DNA from: Argyresthia goedartella
Lineage: Eukaryota; Arthropoda; Insecta; Lepidoptera; Argyresthiidae
Direction of reading: 5' to 3'
DNA: 64,000 nt
Assembly: GCA_949825045.1 (NCBI GenBank)
Contig: OX463808.1
Coordinates: forward strand, 30,069,674-30,133,673
The translations under genes and the position numbers were made by a program. The first letter of the stretch is position 1. The number at the start of each line of letters is the position of its first letter. A model generated the notes under the pieces. It searched no databases. It was given only the letters and a program-made list of their open reading frames with translations, and was not told the origin of the DNA. Shown piece after piece: positions 812-21,571 of the stretch.

Positions 812-966
812 TTTTGACTGCTGTCACTGATTTTGATAGCTGTCACTATGTTTGACAGCTGTCACTATGTTTGACAGCTGTCACTATGTTTGACAGCTGT
901 CACTATGTTTGACAGCTGTCACTATGTTTGACAGCTGTCACTATGTTTGACAGCTGTCACTATTTT
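812..966. repeat. 19-bp tandem array of TGACAGCTGTCA palindromes
   Basis: About eight head-to-tail copies of a 19-bp unit (TTTGACAGCTGTCACTATG). Six units carry the perfect 12-bp palindrome TGACAGCTGTCA, and the two leftmost carry one-base variants (TGACTGCTGTCA, TGATAGCTGTCA). The outer units differ while the inner units are identical, as expected for a recently expanded array. The palindrome matches the known paired TGACAG core bound by TALE homeodomain proteins (Meis/Homothorax, TGIF/Achintya) and contains a CAGCTG E-box. Regulatory function is inference; it may be only a minisatellite. Confidence 0.9.
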
Positions 967-1599
967 TGAAGTACGCTCCGGGTGAGCTTCTGGACTGTAG
1001 ATTATGAAATTCTCTGATTATTGTGGTGGTGGCTGATTTCCAGATAATACAAGTATCAAGGTCCTCGCTTACCATTGATCCGGACAGGCAGACTCACCAC
1101 CTCAGCCACCAGCGTCAGCTCGGCTCTAGCTCCGTGACCTCCTTAATGTGGCAGCCAGCTGCTCAGACGGCGAGGTGCATTTCCTGGTTAGGCTTGCTGT
1201 GATGTGATGATTGACATCGTTCTTCAAATGTAGTGGTCTACTTCACGGCACGCGATAAAGAAAACGACAGAAACGTCGTGATACCACGGCAGTTTGTTGA
1301 ACACGGGCAGTTTGAGACTGACTTACGGTCAACGCAATTTCAAATTCAAACATAACATAAAACGACGATTATGACGAGTTCTGATGCAGACTACTTTACC
1401 AAGTTTGTTAGTAAGCAGACATATCGTAACTTCACAGTATATGTACTTCTACTTGTATAATGTTCAGTTCCTACGGCATTGACGTTGTCTTAGTATAACT
1501 GCTTTGTGAGCCATATTGATTGAGGTTGGCTCGATCTTAATACCTTCATACTGACGACCTATATCCCCAGTTTATAATACAGGAATTTAACTTCAATAG
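967..1599. other. Unassigned sequence with a weak minus-strand exon-like stretch
   Basis: No firm feature. On the minus strand, about 1140 down to 1070 is relatively GC-rich. It is open in one frame (reading ...ARAELTLVAEVVSLPVRING), is preceded by an AG and followed by GTAAGC. This could be a short exon but is too short to assign. Confidence 0.25.
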
Positions 1600-2651: not shown

Positions 2652-2722
2652 TAGTTTATGTGACTGTTACATAATGAAAGGCATGAAAATAAATGTGTGG
2701 GTTTATGAAACGAGCCGATATG
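2652..2722 (+). mobile_element. Family A fragment, left end only
   Basis: TAGTTTATGTGACTGTTACA followed by ATGAAAGGCATGAAAA and GGTTTATGAAACGAGCCGA matches the left end of family A up to the centre of its first hairpin, where homology stops. A broken copy 560 bp downstream of a full one, in the same orientation. Confidence 0.65.
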
Positions 2723-2837
2723 ATAGTTCCTAAACTGAATCAGCATAACATGTTGAAGTAACTGAACTGGACTAACATATCAAAAATAAATTGTCACTCT
2801 TAATTTACTTAAGTGAAATGCTTTTTTAGTAGCCTTG

Positions 2838-3258
2838 CTTTTTAGGGTTCCGTACTCGAAGGGTGCCAAACTGGACCCTATTACTAAGCCTCCGCTGTCC
2901 GTCCATCCGTCCGTCTGTCACCAGGCTGTATCTCGTGAACCGTGATAGTAAGTCCGATAAAATTTTCACAGATGGTGTATTTCTGTTGCGGCTAATACCC
3001 GTAAATACTAAAAAACAGAATAAAATAAATATTTGAGGGGCTCCCATACAACAATTCTTTCAATACCACATACAAACTTATGAACGCATCTGGGTACGTA
3101 CATGGAGTGTGAAAGTAGCCGCACCAATAACTTTATAAACAACATTTTGCTATGTAAAATGCAAACTATTCACTCCACACCAGCCCAACCATTGTACAGT
3201 GGTACGGAGCCCTTCGTGCTCCTTACGTAAGTTAGACTCGCACTTGACCGGTTTTTTA
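2838..3258 (-). mobile_element. GGTTCCGT lepidopteran repeat (family L), copy 1
   Basis: Begins on the plus strand with TTTTTAGGGTTCCGTACTCG and ends GACTCGCACTTGACCGGTTT, the reverse of the family's GGCCAAGTGCGAGTCGGACT head. It contains the typical run of GTCCGTCCATCCGTCCGTCTG. No coding capacity is visible. The copy at 41142-41713 defines the family's ends. I recognise the type as a very common interspersed repeat of Lepidoptera; the exact library name is not known to me. Confidence 0.75.
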
Positions 3259-3636
3259 TTGTGTCGTTAGCTTCTCCGGGGTAAAGCTGATTTTGTCTTG
3301 GGCGTGCTTGAACCCCTCACTGCATTCAGGACTCAGTTTTAATTATGGGGGACCAACTCATTAAAAGAGAATTTACCTTCAAGGCCCTTCTGATCCTAAA
3401 TCGTTAGCATTACGTGGGACATTACCCTTGACCATAATTCGCCATAAATGGGTCTATAGTACAGTGCACTATAAACCACTATAGGTTGCGCCACAGCCGC
3501 ACATACAGTCCATCGCCAACACAAGGTGCGGATCAATAATAGGAGATCAAATATTTGTTTGGAACCGGTGCGGGCGAGATGTTTGCCAACCACCGATGGC
3601 GCACACAACACTGCTTAACAGATCACTTTGATGCTG
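3259..3636. other. Unassigned sequence
   Basis: Nothing recognisable. A short minus-strand open frame (3396-3611) has no supporting features. Confidence 0.3.
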
Positions 3637-4390
3637 TATATGTTACGGCTAAAGCTAGGTGTGAAACTAAACTTAAGTTTAGCCGGGTAGTGTTGAGATT
3701 AATTTCGAGCCTCGGCTAATATCCGAAATAATGTCCATTGCGATAATTGATTTCAACATTAGTCGGCTAAACTGCAGTTTAGCCTTGACGCTGTTGAGGC
3801 TAAAGATGGGTGAGAAAATATGGTTGACATTAGCCGACTAAACTTAAGTTTATTTTTCAGTATACCTAGGCTAATGTTGAAAAATTACCGTCTTAATCTG
3901 GAATAAGTGATGATAATGATTCGGTAGCCGTCAACACTGCGGTAGCTTAGATGAAGGATAAAGGGGGTGAGCGAAGCGAAGTAAGAACAACAAAAAATAC
4001 TAATACTCGTCTTATTATAGTTTTTGTTGTTCTTACATGTTCAACCTAACACGAAAGATAAAGGTGGCTTCGTTTCTCTCACCCCCTTTACCCTTCACCT
4101 AAGCTACCGCAGTGTTTTGCCCTGATATTAGAAATAGTTTTCTCATCTGAATAAAATTACCCCGCCCCGCTCCCCGCAGTCGCACGAATACTTCGTTTTC
4201 AACATTAGCTAACTAATGTCCAATATCAACCTTAACGCATCGGCTAATGTGCAGTCTAGCCGATTAAAGATGACATCCGTTATCACAAACGAACATGACT
4301 TCGGACATTAGAAGAGGCTCGAAATTAATCTTAAGACTAGCCGGCTCAACTTAAGTTTAGTTTCACACCTAGCCTTAACCGTAACATATA
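3637..4390. mobile_element. MITE family B with about 95-bp terminal inverted repeats
   Basis: The left end TATATGTTACGGCTAAAGCT is answered at the right end by the complement of AGCCTTAACCGTAACATATA. The match continues with scattered mismatches for about 95 bp, including a shared GAGATTAATTTCGAGCCTC-type stretch. The interior is rich in TTAGCC/GGCTAA motifs. Element C (3933-4116) is inserted inside. The right end meets the next element in a perfect palindrome, GTAACATATATATGTTAC. Confidence 0.8.
3933..4116. mobile_element. MITE family C, full fold-back copy nested in B
   Basis: Terminal repeat AACACTGCGGTAGCTTAG is mirrored by CTAAGCTACCGCAGTGTT with one mismatch in 25 bp. Almost the whole 184 bp folds back, with paired AAGGGGGTGAGCGAAGCGAA-type and TTGTTGTTCTTAC segments. 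Half copies occur at 4480-4578 and 35853-35975. Confidence 0.8.
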
Positions 4391-4395
4391 TATGT

Positions 4396-4735
4396 TACCG
4401 TAACATTGTCAAAACCGTTAGTTTGTAAACTATCGACAAATTTTAAACTAGACCGACAGGATTTAGAATTTACGTTTCTTTTGCTCTTACATGTCAACCT
4501 AACATGAAGACTATTCGGGAGCTTCGCTGCGCTCGCCCCCTCTAGTCTTCACCTAAGCTACCGCAGTGTTTGCCCTGCAATTCAAGTTTAAACCAGTTTA
4601 CAATTTAACGGTTTTATTACAAACTAACACGTCACATCGTAAGCAGTACGACCTCTTTACAGTTTATCGATAGTTTGTAAGCTGACGAGAAAAAAAACGT
4701 TTGATTATAAACTAACGGTTTTCACGATCTTACGG
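4396..4735. mobile_element. MITE D with nested half copy of C
   Basis: Left CCGTAACATTGTCAAAACCG and right CGGTTTTCACGATCTTACGG are inverted matches with a few mismatches. The adjacent GTTAGTTTGTAAAC and TTATAAACTAAC extend the pairing. A half copy of family C (about 4480-4578, ending TAAGCTACCGCAGTGTTTGC) interrupts it. The element almost touches B on the left and E on the right. Confidence 0.6.
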
Positions 4736-4744
4736 TTAGACAGG

Positions 4745-5801
4745 TTGATCAATTCAAATGGGTGAGTAGGGAGAAGTCAGAAACTGTAAGAGACAGCGAC
4801 ATCTGTTCTTAGGAACCATGGCTTCGAATTTAGATTTAATTCTTAAATCTCTCACATAACCGGGAATCGAACCTGGTTGAAGTCTCTGTAAATAATGTTA
4901 GGTATAAATTCTTCAAGATTTTTCGTTGTTATTGTTGATGGTGCGAATCATAAGTCACAAGGGACTCATTTTTAATATTGATTAAGTAATTGAAAGAAAA
5001 GCCCAACAATAAGATAATTATTTTATTTCAAAATGTGATTGATCGATATGATTCATAATGATGACCGATTCATATCAATTACGATATTTTGCAAATTATT
5101 TAAATTTTGGGCATTTCATTCTAATGTTTTCACAAGATTTAATAGCAAAATTTGGTCCTAATACTTTCAGGATCAATTATACAAACAAATACTACACGCG
5201 ATTACATAAAGAATATTGACCAGGTTCGATTTCCGGTTATGTATGAGAGTTTTAAAAAAGTTTTATCTACACACGTATCATAAACCCTCTTTACTGCGCA
5301 CAAAAACCGCACGTTACGATCAGCATAATGTTAAACTACTTGGTAAAAAATCATTTCTTATCTGAAAAATTACACATTATGACCATAATGTACACATAAA
5401 TTTCGAACGCCGACGCCCGCCTGCCTGCCACCCCTAGTTTGTCTGTGAAGTTGGTACTAGACAGAACAAGCTAAACAACTGCAGAGCCACAATGCCAATC
5501 AAACATGCGGTTCCTGAACACATCAAAAAGAGCTTATGATATGTGTGTAGATAAACTAGTGTATGCATACTGTACATAATTAGGCATTAAAACTCTCGAG
5601 TGATATTATTATGAAACTCGCCTTCGGCTCGTTTCATAAACCCACTCTCGAGTTTTAATGTCCTCCATTATGTAGCAGTTACATAAACTACTATAATGTC
5701 ATTATTATAAATCTAAAATCAACGCCATGATTCCTAAGGACAGATTTCGCTATCTCTTATAGTTTCTGACTTCTCCATACTGACCCATTTGGATTGATCA
5801 T
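4745..5801. mobile_element. MITE E, long inverted repeats containing a tRNA-like B box
   Basis: The left end TGATCAATTCAAATGGGTGA is matched in reverse at 5801. Both arms then share GGAGAAGTCAGAAACT and the complement of AACCGGGAATCGAACCTGGT (4870) / ACCAGGTTCGATTTCCGGTT (5219). These last segments resemble the T-arm/B box of a tRNA gene, once in each orientation. The right arm is interrupted by a whole family A copy (5262-5691). Removing that insert restores the arm-to-arm alignment. Confidence 0.75.
5262..5691 (-). mobile_element. Family A copy 3, inserted in MITE E
   Basis: Reads TTTATCTACACACGTATCAT at its left and TTATGTAGCAGTTACATAAA at its right, the reverse orientation of copy 1. The family A reading frame is broken here by one extra base (CAGTATGCATACAC instead of CAGTTACATACAC). 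It interrupts the right arm of element E, so it inserted after E was in place. Confidence 0.8.
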
Positions 5802-6047
5802 CCTATATATTGCCTTTATTATACACGCCCAGATTTGATTCCAAACTATATTAACTAAATCAGGCTGATTTGGGTCCGATTCCAGAGGCGTTACAACTAA
5901 ACTACTAAATACCATAAAAACAGCGTAACGGCACAGTTGCGCCCATGTATAGCCAGTTTCATTCAATATTCCATTTAGCGCGCCAGGGGCTAGCTCATCA
6001 CCACAGCTATGGATAATTGAAGCTTTCCTCACGTTGTATTTCATCAT
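5757..6047 (-). other. 96-codon open frame, unrecognised
   Basis: Begins MMKYNVRKASIIHSCGDE and contains a hydrophobic stretch (YAVFMVFSSLVVTP). Its last codons run into the right arm of MITE E, so the 3' end is repeat-derived. No family recognised, no clear splice sites. Probably a chance frame, possibly a remnant of a longer membrane-protein exon. Confidence 0.2.
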
Positions 6048-6108
6048 TCTTAGCTTGTTAATCTATCCGGGAGATGTGTTGGGATGAATCCAGGAGATGT
6101 GTATGGAT

Positions 6109-6580: not shown

Positions 6581-7201
6581 TTTTGGATGTATCCAGCAGA
6601 TGTGTTGGGATGTATGCAGGAGATGTGTTGGGATGTATCCAAGAGATGTGTTGGGATGTATCCAGGAGATGTGTTGGGATGTATGCAGGAGATGTATTGG
6701 GATGTATGCAGGTGATGTGTTGGGATGTATCCAGGAGATGTGTTGGGATGTATCCAGGAGATGTGTTGTGATGTATCGAGGAGATGTGTTGGGATGTATG
6801 CAGGAGATGTGTTGGGATGTATCCAGGAGATGTGTTTTGATGTATCCAGGAGATGTGTTGGGATGTATCCAGGAGATGTGTTGGGATGTATCCAGGAGAT
6901 GTGTTGGGATGTATGCAGGAGATGTGTTGGGATGTATCCAGGAGATGTGTTAGGATGTATGCAGGAGATGTGTTGGGATGTATCCAGGAGATGTGTTAGG
7001 ATGTATCCAGGAGATGTGTTGGGATGTATGCAGGAGATGTGTTGGGATGTATGCAGGAGATGTGATGGGATGTATCCAGGAGATGTGTTGGGATGTATGC
7101 AGAAGATGTGTTGGGATGTATCCAGGATATGTGTTGGGATGTATGCAGGAGATGTGTTGGGATGTAACCAGGAGATGTGTTGGGATGTATCCAGGAGGTG
7201 T

Positions 7202-7209
7202 GTTGGGAT
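7202..7209 (+). repeat. Target site duplication, left (GTTGGGAT)
   Basis: Eight bases identical to 12202-12209. They are part of the minisatellite unit, and joining the two flanks restores an uninterrupted 24-bp repeat. P elements make 8-bp duplications. Confidence 0.93.
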
Positions 7210-10200
7210 CACAGATATCGAGAGATAGGCCCTTGGCGCTAAGCTTGTATCGGAACCAGTGTCGCCGAAAACTAAGAACACGCATACATTTACACCACTC
7301 GTACATCAATCCCTCCGCTTTTATTGGTCAGTGCAATGTCATGCACCTATCGTCCGAACACACCCACACTACCGCAGGTATACTAGCTAGTCGAGCTAGT
7401 GTTGGGACAATGCAAGGACAGCGTGTATCATCGATCGATTATAATTTATAGACACTGGTATGGACAGTCGTATACAATGCCGGGTTCTATAAATAAAGGT
7501 GTAACAGATGCGGGGTGACAAGCCGAAAAGAGTTGTTTGCGACATATTTTGAACGATTTTCTCTATGAATCTGATTTGATCAGAGCAACTTTATTTTTTA
7601 CTTCCCCATACAAATCAGCTGACCTGCAGCTCGGCCCAAAATGTACTGAAAAGTGAAGAACAATGCTGATCAAATCAGTTTAATCAAGAAAGATGTTCAG
7701 AATGATGGCCTTAACAACCGTCTTTCGGCATATATACCCTTTCTGTAAAATCCTGTACAGTTAAATACTATCTATTGACCAGAAAAATGTAAATATTTAT
7801 TAAGAACTTGCCGTTTTGACAATTGAGGCGTAGCGTTTTTTGCCAAGTAATGCAGTCTTATATTGGTATATCTTTCCATTACAGCTTTTATCAGTAATAT
7901 TAGATGATTATCCATTGGGTTTTGTTCGAATTGGTGAAAATCTATTTCGTTGAACAGATTCATGCCAATGAATCGGGGTAGTGCTTAAGACATTAATGAT
8001 TGTTTTAAATTTTTAACCCTAACCTTTATTTTGTCTTTGGTAAGCACAGTTGATTTTATGATCACTTCCATGTTTTTGCAACTTACGTGTATCGTCCGGG
8101 CCGCTTGACAGTAGCGCGCTTGTGCATACGTCGCATTTCACAGTTTTAATCAGAGCATGAACGACGAAGCCAGCTACGTAAGTTATGGTTTGTGAGCTGT
8201 ATTGTGTTAGAACATCAACCATTATTTCTACTTCTTCGTCGAATACTGCCATTTCATGTAATATATTTATGTCGTCACACTCTTCATCTCGTAATCGGGG
8301 ATCGATAGTGTGGTTGATGCGAACAGCCGATGAACATGTCAGAACGGAAATCTTTTCGAGTGCTCGGCAGTTCCCACTGTCCACGTCTCGGAGTTCTGAC
8401 TTGACCATCAATTTTTTGTATATTGATTTGAATTGTCGTGCTGTTGGGTTTGTATTACAACCCCCGTGGCTTCGGATTTAGCCAAAAAGCAGCTCAAGAT
8501 GGTCCTGACTAATCTTGTAAACAGGGAAGTAGCTTAGTTTTCGTTCTTTTTCAACTAGCCGAACATACAAATCTTTGAGGCTCTTTATACAGATCAAAAA
8601 TCCGACAAAACCAGTTTTCCTCGATGAGTCAATTACTGCCGTACCATCCACAAGCTTCAATTTTTCAGGTAATTTTCGGCTTTTTCCAGAAAATCAAAGA
8701 TTTCAACCTTATTTTGTTCACAGATTGGCTTTTTGTAATGTAACTGGGCTACATGTCTGGAGTTCAATATATCAAATAGATTGTTGACTATTTTCAGAAA
8801 GTTGACTGTGCCATCGACATTTTGAAAACCTGGTAAATTTAGTTCTGAGCAAAATGTTAATGCGACTGCCACACTGGTGCTGAACAATTGGGATGCCAAT
8901 CTCACTTTCATTTTCTGGTTTTTAAAGAATATGTGGCCTCGATGCAATTTGTTAGCTAAGTGCATCTTTTCTTCTTCTTGGACATCGTTCAATTTTTTTA
9001 AATGTGCCCATTCCACTTCTTTTTGTTTCATCGATAGATTCTTTTTGGGTTTCATCAACAAAGCTTCCTTTGGCTTCAAAAGCATTCCTCAATAACTTCA
9101 ACATATGACATGGATCGGGAAAGATGAAGATCGGTTTCTTTGTAACGGGATGTTCGAAATTTGTTTTTAAGTCTTCTATGTTCAGTGAGCACCCAAGTTC
9201 TTTAGTCATTGTCATATTTGCAGGGCAGCCGTCAAAAGTAAGTGATGTTATTTCGATTCCCGTTTCTTGTAACAGTTCAAGACATTGTGTAACTAGATTC
9301 GCTCGTTGTTCTCCAGTAACACCAGCGACTAGAAAATACCCGACAGGTATCTTCCAAGGGGCATTAATTGCGGTTACTAGAAAAACTAGAGCTTCCTTTG
9401 CCTCGGGCAAAGAATCTGTATCGGCCATTTTGAAATTGCATATATCTACATATCCATGCATATACTCACCGTCCCACTCTACACGACGGCGAATGGCCAT
9501 TTCATCGAGTACAACATTACACACCAGTGTATAATCTGTATTTTCAACTTTCAGCTTGATAGCTTCAAATGACTCCTTTGTAAACCCGGGGTCGGAGTCA
9601 ATCGCCTCGTACCATTTCCTTATGGTGCGAACGTGGGGAAGGCAAGATAGAAACTTTTGTCGCACATATTCGTAGGCCTTAGGCGAATAAAAATGAAGTG
9701 TACAGGCAAAAGTTCTCAATTCTGCTGAGTATTTTTCAGTGGATTTTTTGTCGACAGATTGTTTTTTCTCACATCGTTCAATGAGATCAGCCACTCCTAC
9801 ACCTAAACCTTCTAATTGTGTGACTTGATCAGAATTAACTAATTTTTGATCTTTAAGATCTCTCAGAACATCCTTCATGTTTAAATTTTTTTTGTGGTAG
9901 CGGCTGTTTTGTTTTTGAAGAGTTTTAATTTTCTTATTTTTTTGCTCGAGTACGATTTCCAATTGGTCTATCCGATGGCGCAGCTTCCTCTTGCGTGGGG
10001 TCTCGAAAATGCTGTGATTTTCTTGGTCCTTGTCCTGTAATTTGTATGTTTAATTTAGTTGCTGTTAGTCTTCTTATCACAGGAATATGAATGGGCGATA
10101 GAAGTATGATAAAGAAAGAAAGGTACCTTTAAATTAAGATAAATTGGGATCAAATGTGCCTTTGCCACCCCGCATGGAAAAAGGCGTGACACTGTCTGTA

Positions 10201-10397
10201 TGTTTACTTTTATAAAATTAAATAAAATTACAATTCAAATAATAATTCAAATACATTTCTTACATTTTCATTACCTACTCTGTCCGTGGTCAGCAAAGAC
10301 GGTTCTTCAGACTCAGCTTGTTTTGATGTCTAAAAATAAAGATGTAAATAAGTAACCCGAAGATTTTTATAAATTGTTTTAATTTGACCCGATTTAC

Positions 10398-10609
10398 ATC
10401 ATTGCCGTCATCTCCTTCAGACACGCATTCATTCAAATGTGTTTTCTCTGGTTTTATGGTATCCTGAGACAAAAAGGTGCAAGCAATCAGTATTCAAATA
10501 CGTATCACGCAGTTTTTCATGTTAAAATTTCAAAAAAATACACCTGATCGCTGCTATCTCCTACAGAGACGCATTCATTGATATGGTTTTTCTCTGGATC
10601 TCTGGTACC
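10398..10609 (-). other. Tandemly duplicated 66-bp exons 3 and 4 of the P element gene
   Basis: Exon 3 (10609-10544) and exon 4 (10463-10398) are each exactly 66 bp, phase 0 at both ends, with acceptor AG and donors GTGTAT and GTAAAT. Their products align: DPEKNHINECVSVGDSSD and KPEKTHLNECVSEGDDGN share P-E-K, NECVS and GD. Inclusion of either, both or neither keeps the frame. They lie in an acidic linker between the THAP finger and the coiled coil. Confidence 0.75.
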
Positions 10610-11009
10610 CTAATAAAATAAGATGCATTACTTAAAGTTATATGTAGTTAGTAAAGGAATTTATAATTTCAAGTAGATATTCAATTAATAATCTAGAAAC
10701 AGTCTTTTTATAGTGGTATGGTGTAAGAAATATTTTAAAGCTATCCATTGTATGAAATTAAATATAAATTACTAACATGAGACATCATAACTGGTATTTT
10801 CATCGTCGGCACTGCCCATGGCCACATTCGCCTGTATTTCTTTAATTTTTGAAAACATTTCTCCTCGAAATGAATTGAGCATATTTTACATTGTTTTTGT
10901 GGAAACCAGCGAGGCCCTCGCATCACCGCTTCGATCCATTTTTCTTTTATTTTTGGTTCACTAGGAAAACTGAAACATTGATTAGCGTAATAAAATACAT
11001 AACTTTATC

Positions 11010-11245
11010 ATTGAAGCAAATCGGAACAGTAAATATAAAAATCAAAATGGCGTCCAATATTCAAAATCTGACATCTATATCATAATTGTATTCTAACCGG
11101 GTCCCCAGATATCGATTTTGAAGTAAATCGGACCAGTAACTACGAAGTTCGAAATGTCGGCAACTTTTTCAAAATATGACAGAATCATGATTGGACCTCA
11201 ACCGGATCCCCAGATATAGATTTTGAGTCAAATCGGACTAATAAC
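11010..11245. repeat. About 2.3 copies of a 100-120-bp direct repeat in P element intron 1
   Basis: Segments beginning TTGAAGCAAATCGGAACAGT, TTGAAGTAAATCGGACCAGT and TTGAGTCAAATCGGACTAAT recur. The first two end in GG(G/A)TCCCCAGATAT. Diverged tandem repeat inside the transposon's first intron, with no coding sense. Confidence 0.65.
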
Positions 11246-11295
11246 TATACAACCCCCTTATCCCGACTTTTTTGCGTCGAAATTACCCGTGTATT

Positions 11296-11417
11296 CTCCG
11301 TTCACAGTTGTTCTGCCTCCAGAGACCCCTTTGCCTCTCTTCTTTTTTTCAACAGAATCCTTACAGCTAGAAAGAGAGGCAAAGAGGTTTATGAAGGTAG
11401 AATAACTGTGAACGGAG
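11296..11417. repeat. 122-bp inverted repeat (hairpin) in P element intron 1
   Basis: Left arm starts CTCCGTTCACAGTTGTTCTG and the right arm ends with CAGAATAACTGTGAACGGAG-like sequence (GTAGAATAACTGTGAACGGA). Arms of about 46 bp pair with several mismatches around a 30-bp loop. It may be a small MITE inserted in the element or a structured intron segment. Confidence 0.7.
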
Positions 11418-12201
11418 TTCATTCTGATTCGGACTTAGCCGAGAAATTCTCTTCGGACCTGACTGAAAGCATCGGAATTTCCGATCAATACTTATAACAC
11501 CCCATTATCCTTCGTTATCATTTAAGTTTGTTTAAACAAACTTAAAATCTAAACTGCCTGTTTGGCAATCATTGGAATAACTAACAATAAACTTACGTAT
11601 TATGAGTAATAAAATAACTATATTATTACATTAACTATATTAGTAATTGCGGAATGATAAAATCTATCGATTCAAAAACATAATTCTCCTATCAGTATCC
11701 CCATCACTATATGTCGTCTCTGTTTGCGTGTGACAGTTCGCCTCCGTATCACGATGCATCTTTGCTTTCGTACTTAGATAAGTGTGAAATATTCATTGCG
11801 TGTTAGCTTGGCAATACGAAGTGAAATTAAGGTACAAAACAAGCAATGTAGCAACAAACTTAGCTAGAACAACATGACATTGTCACTTTAATGTCAATTC
11901 GTGACGAATTTTCCGCCAATGATTTATTTTCGTAATAATGTTTATTTCTTGTGTTTTAAGAAGAAATAATAGTTAGAATGAGACTTACAAGTGATATGTG
12001 ACACCGGCGTTCTTGGAGTTCACAATCTCGCTTCTATTTTTGCACGTGAGTATTGCACAGGTCGGCATTTTAGAAAAACAACGGAAATGAATTCATCACT
12101 GCGGTCGCCCGGTGACTACCGAGAATTTTTAATATCGAACCTGTCGGAGCTACATTTGTTCGCACATGCCACGCCCCTCAACCTATCTCTCGATATCTGT
12201 G

Positions 12202-12306
12202 GTTGGGATGTATCCAGGAGATGTGTTGGGATTTATGCAGGAGATGTGTTGGGATTTATCCAGGAGATGTGTTTCGATGTATCCAGGAGATGTGTTGGGA
12301 TGGGTG
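12202..12306. repeat. 24-bp minisatellite, right part, starting with the TSD
   Basis: Begins with the second GTTGGGAT (12202-12209) and continues for about four 24-bp units (GATGTATCCAGGAGATGTGT type, with variants GGGATTTATCC and TTTCGATG). It is the continuation of the array that ends at 7209. Confidence 0.93.
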
Positions 12307-17222: not shown

Positions 17223-17660
17223 ACATATTCAGTTCAGTTCAAAGATTTTATTCATAATAGCACAAAAATTGAGACTTAATGAACGTCATAACATTATGAA
17301 GCAAGCATAATATAACGTTAAGTAGGTGCCTAATTATTACATAGTCCATAATATATAGGGTGCAATGAACTGGTTTAATGCCAGATGTCGGTGTCTTGTA
17401 AAAAGTCATTAATTTTGTAGTAGGCCTTTGTGCACAAATTATATACCTATATTTTTCAAATCGAGCTTCAGTTAAGTTTTGAATTTCGTGCGGAATTTTA
17501 TTGTAGAAGCGTATACAGTGACCCATAAAAGAACTGCTAACTTTTGTGAGTCTGAACATTGGAAAAGAAAGTTTATGTTTATTTCTAGTTTGCACATTGT
17601 GGCGGCTATCAATGGTTTTAAAGCTACTGATATTTTTCCTCACATACATTATTCCTCCCC
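17223..17660 (-). mobile_element. LINE 3' fragment (Jockey/CR1 type), family 2
   Basis: On minus, the C-terminal tail of a LINE protein: MYVRKNISSFKTIDSRHNVQ, then TRNKHKLSFPMFRLTKVSSS and the FMGHCIRFYNKIPHEIQNL motif, which parallels FKGQCILYYNKIPLEILKL of the 19-kb LINE. The 3' end is at 17223 where AATAAAATCTTTGAACTGAA runs out. 5' truncated after about 440 bp. Confidence 0.75.
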
Positions 17661-19267
17661 ATAGCGTTCAGCCAGAAACTCATTTGGAATAAAGAAATTT
17701 TAAAATTGTCTAGCGCAGGTACGTAGCGACTTTCAAACGCGGCAGCACTGTCGATGTCCGGTTGCCCGAATGTGTAACGTTGCAAACACAAAGGCCGGAG
17801 CAAGTCTTTTTGCTCGTGGTCGCGCGGACGAGGTGCTGCTGTGTGGACATGCGCCCGTAGGGAGTTCACACTTGTGTATATAGCTATTGGGATGGCAGAA
17901 GACCGATGAGATATCAAGTACTTGAATATCGGCTGTTGATAATGTTCTACATCATATATAAATAGGATAAGATATCACGAAGCTAACAATTTTCACTTTT
18001 CCATAATCCTCAACGTCATTTGGTTGGGTGCTTTATTGCATGTGTATTAAGGTTCAAACGCTACGATAACCCATTTGTCTCAATAAAACGCGACACTAGG
18101 TATCTCACAAACACCCACTATTCAGCAATATGAATGTGAATCGGTGGATTTGCAAAATATCCGTATCAAGTGCCGCCCTCATCTCGACACCACCTCTCCC
18201 CCCCACCCTGTTCCGCATCCCCACCCCCACCCCCCACCCCGTCCCGCACCCCGCGCCGCGGGCGCCTCGTTTGGTCGTCCTCTCAGTGTATCGAGATATT
18301 CGAGATACAAGCTCCGAAGGCGCCTCGATTGTCCCGAACACAAACGGAAATATTGTCCCCGTGTGAAAAATGAATATTTTCACAGCTGAGCGCGCTGACG
18401 TTAGTTCGCCGACTTTCGACGCCGTAAAAAACGCTTTGTCAATCCATTTTATTGATGTAAGCCCGACGATACGGAGGGGAGTTTTCGGCATTGGCAGACG
18501 AGTTTTAAAACGCTCTGTAAAAACTCAACAATTTAGCCGAGGGTCAATTACTCAAAGTGTGAGTGTGTCCACAGGTTTCAGGCAATAGTGGAATTAAGAA
18601 ATTAAACTGTCGAATATACAAATTGGTCCCGTCACGATCACTATCGTTGAACACAAGGTTATGACTAAATTCAAGTAAAACTAAATAGATGTCGCGACTG
18701 ATGGAGCAATTTAAAATTGGAACGGTTCGCTCGCTGACCATAGACTAGTAATTGTTCAGAGTCGGCACGGGGCTGCTCGCACTCGTGGTTTTATTGCCCG
18801 GTTCGCCGCCGGCTGAATGGAAAGCAAGCAATTTGGCGGTCGGACCGCAAGAGGCGTGCATGTTTATTAGAGACAGCGCCACCCCTCTACCCCGATTTGC
18901 ATAACGGGCTGTGTCGTAATTAGAAACCATCTCGGCCGTCCCTCCTTTGTGCCGTCAAGTCTGCTGGGTCAACGTCAAAATGCCTTCTATTTAGCCCGCT
19001 CACAAGCGTATAATCCGACCGAATTTAAACGGACATGTAGAAGCTGTGAGTAGTCCCTTGGAAGCGAGGCCTCTAAATCTTCTTAATCACAGTCAAACCC
19101 CAGAAATTGTTGTTTTCAACCGTTTAACGATATTCAAAAGTTGGCATTAAATCGATAAGTTACTAACATTTGAATAGATCTTCTTTAGTAAGCGTAAAGG
19201 TTACAGTTGTCGTATTGAACTTGCAAATAGGTTGTTCGTGTAATCCGAGAAATGTGTAAGTATTTAT
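17661..19267. other. Single-copy-like sequence with a C-rich tract
   Basis: No element or exon recognised. Overlapping short frames at 18105-18590 come from the low-complexity C-rich stretch. Confidence 0.35.
18191..18262 (-). other. C-rich tract, potential G-quadruplex on the minus strand
   Basis: Plus strand holds CCTCTCCCCCCCACCCTG, then CATCCCCACCCCCACCCCCC and ACCCCGTCCCGCACCCCGCG. On minus this gives more than four runs of three or more G with 1-4-base loops, the standard pattern for a G-quadruplex. Formation is inference. Confidence 0.6.
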
Positions 19268-20388
19268 CTGCGAATGTGATCTTGACTGGGAATTGTGTGA
19301 AACAGCTTCAAAATTGAAAGACAAAAAGGAGAATTTGATGATGTTAATGGTGTATTGTCTTTAACCTTGAATTGGTTCACAGTTAATAATTTATTGTTAA
19401 ACGCTGGTAAAACCAAGTGTATCAAATTCTCACTTCCAAATGTCAGGCAAGTTGAGACCAGTTTAGTGTTAGACAACAGCACGTTAGAATTAGTAAATGA
19501 TACGAAGTTTCTTGGAATAACCATTGATAGCAAATTGCAGTGGGGACCCCACATAGATAAATTGGCTGGTAAATTAAGTTCTGCGGCTTACGCTGTTAGG
19601 AACATCAGACAAAGCACGGATGTGGCTACATCTAGGCTAGTATATTTTAGTTACTTTCATAGTGTGATGTCCTATGGTATCTTGTTGTGGGGGAAAGCAG
19701 CGGATATTCAAACTATTTTTATTTTACAGAAAAGAGCTATTCGAGCAATTTATAATTTAAAACGAACAGACTCCTTAAGAGAGCTTTTTAAAGAAATTGA
19801 CATACTAACAGTAGCTAGTCAATTTATTTTCGAAAATATAATGTATGAACGCCAGAACCTTACAACATTTTCCAAACTTAGCGATAGCTGTAATGTTTAC
19901 CTAAGAAATAATCACAGACTATGTGCGCCCCGTTTTAGACTCGCGAAGGTTAGCAATTCTTTCAAGGGTCAGTGCATTCTCTACTACAATAAGATACCTC
20001 TGGAGATTTTGAAATTGCCACTTGAGCAATTTAAAAAGCATGTTAAAGCAACTTTGTCGAAAAAGGGATATTACAATGTTCAAGATTACTTAAATGACAG
20101 GACTGTATGGGGTTAATCTGGCTCAACACAGACCTTGCTGTTAATAATTTTGTAATTATTTATTCCTGCTTATTAATCATAACAATTAAATTTTTCATAT
20201 TTGTATTAGTTAAGCACAACCTATTTTTAAAAGAGATCTAAAAATCAATCTGTGGGAGTTTCTACGCCCTTCTTCTCCCACAGTGGTCCAATGTAGAGAA
20301 GAGGCAAAAAATGACGTTTGCTAAGTATATGTAAATATCTACAGTAATAAAGTACTTTGACTATTGACTATTGACTATTGACTATTGA
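19268..20388 (+). mobile_element. Jockey/CR1-type LINE, 3' 1.1 kb, copy 1
   Basis: Reverse transcriptase C-terminal part and tail: LTLNWFTVNNLLLNAGKTKC, FLGITIDSKLQWGPHIDKL, YFHSVMSYGILLWGKA, IQKRAIRAIYNL-like (LQKRAIRAIYNL), APRFRLAKVSNSFKGQCILY. The frame runs 19355-20116. Upstream sequence to 19268 continues it with one frameshift. The YADD-containing part is missing. The 3' UTR ends in four or five TTGACTA repeats (20355-20388). Copies of this family: 6109, 20785, 37173 (minus), 53913. Confidence 0.88.
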
Positions 20389-20784: not shown

Positions 20785-21571
20785 TATCAGACAAAGCACG
20801 GATGTGGCTACATCTAGGCTAGTATATTTTAGTTACTTTCATAGTGTGATGTCCTATGGTATCTTGTTGTGGGGGAAAGCAGCGGATATTTAAACTATTT
20901 TAATTTTACAGAAAAGAGCTATTCGAGCAATTTATAATTTAAAACGAACAGACTCCTTAAGAGAGCTTTTAAAAGAAATTGACATACTAACAGTAGCTAA
21001 TCAATTTATTTTCGAAAATATAATGTATGTACGCAAGAACCTTTCAACATTTTCCAAACTTAGCGATAGCTGTAATGTTAACCTAAGAAATAATCACAGA
21101 CTGTGTGCGCCCCGTTTTAGACTCGTGAAGGTTAGCAATTCTTTCAAGGGTCAGTGCATTCTCTACTACAATAAGATACCTCTGGAGATTTTGAAATTGC
21201 CATTTGAGCAATTTAAAAAGCATGTTAAAGCGACTTTGTCGAAAAAGGGATATTACAATGTTCAAGATTACTTAAATGACAGGACTGTATGCGGTTAAAC
21301 TGGCTCAACACTAACCTGGCTCAACCTTGCTGTTAATAATTTTGTAATTATTTATTCCTGCTTATTAATCATAACAATTAAATTTTTCATATTTGTATTA
21401 GTTAAGCACAACCTATTTTTAAAAGAGATCTAAAATCAATCTGTGGGAGTTTCTACGCCCTTCTTCTTCCACAGTGGTCCAATCTAGAGAAGAGGCAAAA
21501 AATGACGTTTGCTAAGTATATGTAAATATCTTCAGTAATAAAGTACTTTGACTTTGACTTTGACTTTGACT
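20785..21571 (+). mobile_element. Same LINE, copy 2, more truncated
   Basis: Begins ATCAGACAAAGCACGGATGT, equivalent to 19603, and stays nearly identical to copy 1 to the end. Differences include ATATTCAAACT to ATATTTAAACT, which creates a stop, and ATGTATGTACGCAAGAACCT. The last 91 codons (21023-21298) are open. The tail is (TTTGACT/TTTGAC)n at 21547-21570 instead of TTGACTA, so the two are separate insertions or have diverged tails. Confidence 0.85.

What the first reader, a model, noticed from the sequence alone, without database searches (positions are those of the whole stretch)
7202..12209. A structurally complete P element in a probable lepidopteran genome
Perfect 20-bp inverted ends, a perfect 8-bp target duplication (GTTGGGAT) and a six-exon THAP/P-type transposase gene between them. 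Removing 7210-12201 plus one duplication copy restores an unbroken 24-bp repeat, so both ends are exact. P elements are best known from Diptera, with relatives in chordates and a few other animals. A full-length element with defined ends here would be informative on host range and possible horizontal transfer. The rarity in Lepidoptera is from general knowledge, not from a search.
Basis: partly seen in the sequence, partly recalled or inferred. Interest (0 to 1): 0.88.

Follow-up and report, generated by a model that had tools for sequence, protein, structure and literature searches.

The report
Young P-element family in a lepidopteran
This is a real P-type jumping gene in a moth or butterfly genome; this copy's own enzyme gene is broken, but it belongs to a young family of near-identical copies, some with an unbroken enzyme gene, that inserts at the same kind of DNA site as the fruit-fly P element.

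Summary
The observation mostly holds. Perfect 20-bp inverted ends (7210-7229, 12182-12201) sit between 8-bp direct repeats and enclose a minus-strand, six-exon THAP/P transposase gene. "Structurally complete" is only partly right: exon 6 has three frame breaks and two in-frame stops. The unnamed 1.109-Gb host genome settles the ends: 40 left-end places match 191/191 bases at 100% and 40 right-end places at 99-100%, the best-scored of 1360 and 1352 unscored candidates. Of 24 copies with both ends in hand, 20 have identical 8-bp duplications. The window and 8 other long copies differ pairwise by 0.56-1.41%; in another set, 2 of 9 long copies keep the six-exon frame open. Insertions prefer GTnnnnAC (54 of 69 sites begin GT or end AC; background 11.4%), as Drosophila P does. 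Rarity in Lepidoptera is not supported: relatives occur in eight named lepidopteran species. New member of a known kind.

The parts
7202..7209 (.). left copy of the 8-bp target site duplication GTTGGGAT
   Evidence: 8-bp duplications of the family
7210..7229 (+). left terminal inverted repeat, 20 bp
   Evidence: same end at 40 genomic places at 100% over 191 bases
12182..12201 (-). right terminal inverted repeat, 20 bp, perfect complement of the left
12202..12209 (.). right copy of the 8-bp target site duplication GTTGGGAT
11989..12068 (-). transposase exon 1 (start Met, N-terminal part of the THAP domain)
   Evidence: tblastn
10777..10969 (-). transposase exon 2 (rest of the THAP domain, PF05485)
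10544..10609 (-). exon 3, short linker; its region is 76% identical to that of exon 4 (tandem duplication)
10398..10463 (-). exon 4, duplicate of exon 3
10279..10329 (-). exon 5, linker
7772..10034 (-). exon 6 homology: HTH (PF12017), RNase H N-part (PF21787), GTP-binding insertion (PF21788), RNase H C-part (PF21789), C-terminal domain (THAP9_C below cut-off); interrupted by three frame breaks and two stops
8952..10034 (-). part of exon 6 that is still open; with exons 1-5 a 512-residue frame
6585..7209 (.). host 23-bp tandem array (27.2 units), left of the insertion
12202..12302 (.). host 23-bp tandem array (4.4 units), right of the insertion

Best explanation
A cut-and-paste DNA transposon of the P superfamily. 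A THAP-domain transposase with an RNase H-like DDE core and a GTP-binding insertion binds the ends, excises the element and joins it to a staggered target of the form WnnGTnnnnACnnW, leaving 8-bp duplications. The window copy is one insertion, in a 23-bp tandem array, of a young family in a lepidopteran; its own transposase gene is now broken. Shown: ends, duplications, domain order, near-identity of the copies sampled, target motif, open copies in the same genome. Inferred: the mechanism (from Drosophila P), that copies with open frames supplied the transposase, and that the short internally deleted copies were moved in trans.
For: Ends and duplication. THAP, Tnp_P_element, RNase H N-part, GTP-binding insertion and RNase H C-part in order; match to the solved P transposase 6p5a at E 1.2e-7, with both catalytic-Asp motifs aligned. 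Same ends at 40 left and 40 right best-scored places. Of 24 copies with both ends in hand, duplications are 8/8 in 20, 7/8 in 3 and out of register in 1. Target motif at 54 of 69 sites against 11.4% of window 8-mers and 82 of 800 flank controls; A or T at -3 in 40 of 41 and at +3 in 37 of 37. Pairwise divergence 0.56-1.41% in 36 pairs. Open six-exon frame in 2 of 9 long copies.
Against: This copy has no working frame. 7 of the 9 long copies also fail to read open. Beyond the TIRs only one 10-bp subterminal inverted match was found, with 0.25 expected by base shuffling, and none within either end alone. Scored places are the best-matching ones, which biases identity and age towards young copies; 1360 and 1352 are unscored first-look candidates, not a copy number.
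Confidence: 0.96

Rival explanations
1. A domesticated THAP9-like host gene that happens to lie between inverted repeats.
For: Domain order like THAP9.
Against: Near-identical copies with the same ends at unrelated sites with 8-bp duplications, and a broken frame here.
Confidence: 0.01
2. The window copy is an old relic of a family that died long ago.
For: Five coding lesions. Its departures at sites invariant in relatives, 13 of 239, exceed those of its nearest relative P0099, 8 of 242.
Against: Perfect TIRs and duplication; mean divergence 1.0% from 8 sister copies, which have means of 0.79-1.30%; the two stops are absent from the other copies (0 of 14 and 0 of 13 determined) and the short duplication from 14 of 14; two relatives show more departures than the window in total (P0106 21 of 253; P0001 7 of 111).
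Confidence: 0.05
3. The frame breaks are assembly errors and this copy is intact.
For: One break is a one-base difference beside short base runs.
Against: Two stops, a 59-bp loss and a short tandem duplication are not typical read errors; 2 of 9 other copies in the same assembly read open.
Confidence: 0.03
4. Recent arrival by horizontal transfer.
For: Young family.
Against: No close relative in the protein search: 66% over 81% of the query at best; the clade's named members are Lepidoptera; nothing in viral contigs by protein or by exact TIR. Lepidopteran genomes as such could not be searched, so transfer between lepidopterans is not excluded.
Confidence: 0.08

Closest known systems
Drosophila melanogaster P element
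   Same: 8-bp duplications, perfect TIRs, THAP / HTH / split RNase H / GTP-binding insertion / C-terminal domains (passages of PMC7776569); 14-bp palindromic target with core GTCCGGAC (passages of PMC3276498)
   Different: About 5 kb not 2.9 kb, 20-bp not 31-bp TIRs, six exons not four, duplicated linker exons, centre of the target motif weak, no clear 11-bp subterminal repeats
Lepidopteran P-type transposases (Chilo suppressalis P0100, Spodoptera exigua P0050, Euphydryas editha P0001)
   Same: Same 10-row clade (SH-aLRT 100); P0100 matches over the whole length at 50%
   Different: 62-76% identity over the parts compared, so different families; their element ends were not examined
Zebrafish Pdre2 / THAP9
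   Same: 8-bp duplications, THAP9-type transposase (passages of PMC10983969)
   Different: 13-bp TIRs and 12-bp subterminal repeats there
1360 and Galileo
   Same: P superfamily with GT...AC target motifs (passages)
   Different: typically 7-bp duplications; Galileo has long TIRs (abstract listing)

Membership tests
P element superfamily | Transposase with THAP, P-type HTH and RNase H split by a GTP-binding insertion | tested here: met
   THAP 6.7e-11, PF12017 2.5e-23, PF21787 1.3e-45, PF21788 6.2e-39, PF21789 4.6e-9 (its other half 9.3e-5, below cut-off because a stop splits it); C-terminal PF22824 0.041, below cut-off
P element superfamily | Catalytic D, D, E motifs | tested here: met
   both Asp motifs align with 6p5a; the Glu is assigned from the PF21789 match, by inference
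P element superfamily | Short perfect TIRs | tested here: met
P element superfamily | 8-bp target site duplication | tested here: met
   8/8 in 20 of 24, 7/8 in 3 of 24, out of register in 1 of 24
P element superfamily | Palindromic GT....AC target | tested here: met
   54 of 69 sites; palindrome score reached by 2 of 5000 random draws for 39 sites; literature motif
P element superfamily | Subterminal inverted repeats | tested here: inconclusive
   one 10-bp match, 0.25 expected
Autonomous P element (this copy) | Unbroken transposase frame | tested here: not met
Autonomous P element (family) | At least one copy with an open six-exon frame | tested here: met
   2 of 9 long copies
Active transposon | New insertions now | not testable with these tools
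   one assembly only
1360 / Galileo | 7-bp duplication, or long TIRs | tested here: not met
   8-bp duplications and 20-bp TIRs

The most novel reading that the evidence does not exclude
The family is still mobile in this species, with perhaps over a thousand insertions (unscored candidates), and copies such as the window's, which keep an open 512-residue THAP plus dimerisation plus partial RNase H frame while every coding lesion lies downstream, act as repressors like the 66-kDa Drosophila P protein: an independent P-M-like control system in Lepidoptera. Against it: the first stops of the 7 other long copies that do not read open fall at seven different places, codons 30 to 732, so no common truncated product is seen; for that reason I put the odds at 0.07 instead of the 0.1 I first wrote.
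Probability: 0.07. Interest if true: 0.7.

Novelty: new member of a known kind. Interest (0 to 1): 0.42.

Why it matters
P transposition is known in mechanism mainly from Drosophila, with some work on THAP9. A young lepidopteran family with exact ends, open copies, short deleted derivatives and a measured target motif would give a second insect system in which P transposition, self-regulation and host silencing can be tested. The shared target pattern suggests that target recognition is an old property of the superfamily.

Tried and rejected
Rejected: the 24-bp repeat unit (23 bp); rarity in Lepidoptera; recent horizontal transfer as a supported claim; an early idea that another copy (L017) shares the window's loss near 8072 (one search suggested it, one search shows a different size; only the one-base frame break has the same length in both). 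My first check of the second stop in other copies looked two bases off; one search repeats it at the right place. No tRNA or Rfam match was found in the window, and 10 of 58 ORFs of 85 or more residues outside the element were tried against Pfam without a match. A TIR-pattern count, a transposase-core search and one marker-family search (PF01723, chorion by recall) in the host genome got no answer. Paper searches (20 of 40 listed; 10 of 397 listed) showed no study devoted to lepidopteran P elements; that covers the held open-access library and the rows listed only.

Full report
Observation. The 20-bp ends at 7210-7229 and 12182-12201 are perfect complements and are the only 2 matches in the window at up to 3 mismatches, with a mean of 0.00 in 100 shuffles. 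GTTGGGAT flanks both sides. The site is a 23-bp tandem array, 6585-7209 and 12202-12302, and GTTGGGAT is part of the unit, so the flanking repeat alone proves little here; other copies settle it.

Gene. On the minus strand six exons with GT/AG borders and matching phases run from 12068 to the end of the exon 6 homology at 7772. Pfam finds THAP, Tnp_P_element, RNase H N-part, GTP-binding insertion and RNase H C-part in order; THAP9_C is below cut-off. The solved P transposase 6p5a is matched at E 1.2e-7. The regions of exons 3 and 4 are a tandem duplication (76% over 86 bases).

Damage. Homology to Spodoptera exigua P0050 and other relatives changes frame near 9016-9054, 8660-8693 and 8073-8091; in-frame stops lie at 8478-8480 and 7985-7987. 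Exons 1-5 and the first part of exon 6 are open for 512 residues. Compared with 14 other copies that hold these parts: the first stop is absent from 14 of 14, the second from 13 of 13 determined, 1 not determined; the short duplication near the first frame break is absent from 14 of 14; the 59-bp loss is absent from 13 of 14 and the other has a loss of another size; the one-base break is absent from 12 of 14, one copy having the same length as the window there and one a different change; the 65-bp loss outside the gene is absent from 13 of 14, 1 not determined.

Family. In the unnamed host genome (1.109 Gb, 89 contigs) the left 191 bases had 1360 first-look candidates, of which 40 were scored: 40 places match at 100% over 191 bases, the window included, plus one partial match (93% over 150 bases) beside one of them. 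The right 191 bases had 1352 candidates; of 40 scored, 29 match at 100% and 11 at 99%. These are best-first samples; they over-represent young copies and give no copy number. I fetched 20 copies in stretches of about 8 kb, flanks at the 19 other left-end places and flanks at 37 of the 40 right-end places. In 14 of the 20 stretches both ends are present: duplications 8/8 in 10, 7/8 in 3, and 1 out of register. One search paired 9 more copies, two of them among the 20, all 8/8. With the window, 20 of 24 are identical. Sizes of the 14: 5072-5113 bp (6), 1166-1185 bp (3), 406 bp (1), 2614 bp (1), and 5420, 5880 and 7330 bp with inserts (3).

Age. The window and 8 other long copies differ by 0.56-1.41% in 36 pairs, over 2692 to 5087 compared bases. 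With a rate of about 2.9e-9 per site per generation (recalled, from no call) this is roughly one to two and a half million generations. At sites invariant among the other sequences of an 11-relative set, the window departs at 6 of 109 before the first break and 7 of 130 after it. P0099 departs at 3 of 105 and 5 of 137; the highest values are 6 of 58 (P0078, first part) and 12 of 144 (P0106, second part); the lowest are 0 of 103 and 0 of 118 (P0100). So the window lies within the range but on the high side; a recent inactivation fits but is not proved.

Open copies. With P0099 as query, 3 of 13 other long copies give one frame over residues 1-743 without a stop. With exons and splice sites checked, 2 of 9 read open from start to end; the other 7 stop early at different places. 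So the family has recently been, and may still be, autonomous.

Target choice. At 69 insertion sites (41 from left ends, the window included; 28 from right ends not paired with these) 54 begin GT or end AC, against 11.4% of 8-mers in window 12500-63990 (binomial p 1e-37) and 82 of 800 8-mers from the same flanks; the 28 right-end sites alone give 22. Three bases outside the duplication A or T stands in 40 of 41 and 37 of 37. A palindrome score over the first 39 sites was 122 of 312 against a mean of 84, reached by 2 of 5000 random draws. Drosophila P has GTCCGGAC in a 14-bp motif, and 1360 and Galileo have GT...AC motifs (passages of PMC3276498 and PMC4168063). One copy is inserted at GTCCGAAC inside another copy, with an 8/8 duplication.

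Host and relatives. Named relatives of a LINE fragment at 19301-20113 are Plutella, Parnassius, Euphydryas, Chilo, Pararge, Pieris, Manduca, Mythimna and Spodoptera, besides some labelled as bacteria and one psyllid (120 of 140 listed). The transposase finds 98 and 372 proteins (120 of 372 listed), named from eight lepidopteran species and from an aphid, a psyllid, beetles, ants, a mollusc and a fish. A tree of 43 rows (the window and 42 of the 215 proteins held, picked by me: named species and top unnamed hits) puts the window with P0099 (69% identity, SH-aLRT 99) inside a set of 10 (100) with Chilo, Spodoptera and Euphydryas; 13 inner forks are unresolved and some long branches meet. P elements in Lepidoptera are already in print.

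Verdict. A genuine P element with exact ends, broken in this copy, from a young lepidopteran family. New member of a known kind.

Noticed in passing
L013 (G000:C15:12325321-12333321), about 3715-6062 of the locus: A copy of the family carries a nested element of a second P-type family, about 2.3 kb, with its own inverted ends (CATCGATTTAGTATACCCAAGATAC) and 8-bp duplication ATTACTAA; two reading-frame pieces match THAP (9.6e-07) and Tnp_P_element (2e-17) in Pfam.
   Followed up: partly
L033 (G000:C4:9703772-9703992): One copy is inserted into the left end of another copy at GTCCGAAC, close to the Drosophila P target consensus.
   Followed up: partly
L015 (G000:C13:22519306-22527306), about 3678-4485 of the locus: An insert of about 0.8 kb with inverted ends ACTCGGCGCCACGA and an apparent 4-bp duplication GTAT lies in intron 3 of that copy.
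   Followed up: no
window 11296-11417: A 46-nt, 87% inverted repeat with 30 nt between the arms in intron 1, possibly a small hairpin element, beside repeats spaced 105-107 bases at 11011-11252.
   Followed up: no
window 19301-20113, 17251-17667, 20894-21295: LINE-like fragments; the first is 98% identical to an unnamed protein, P0216; the others look related to it by eye.
   Followed up: partly
window 813-969: A 19-bp tandem array, 8.3 units, 95% matches.
   Followed up: no
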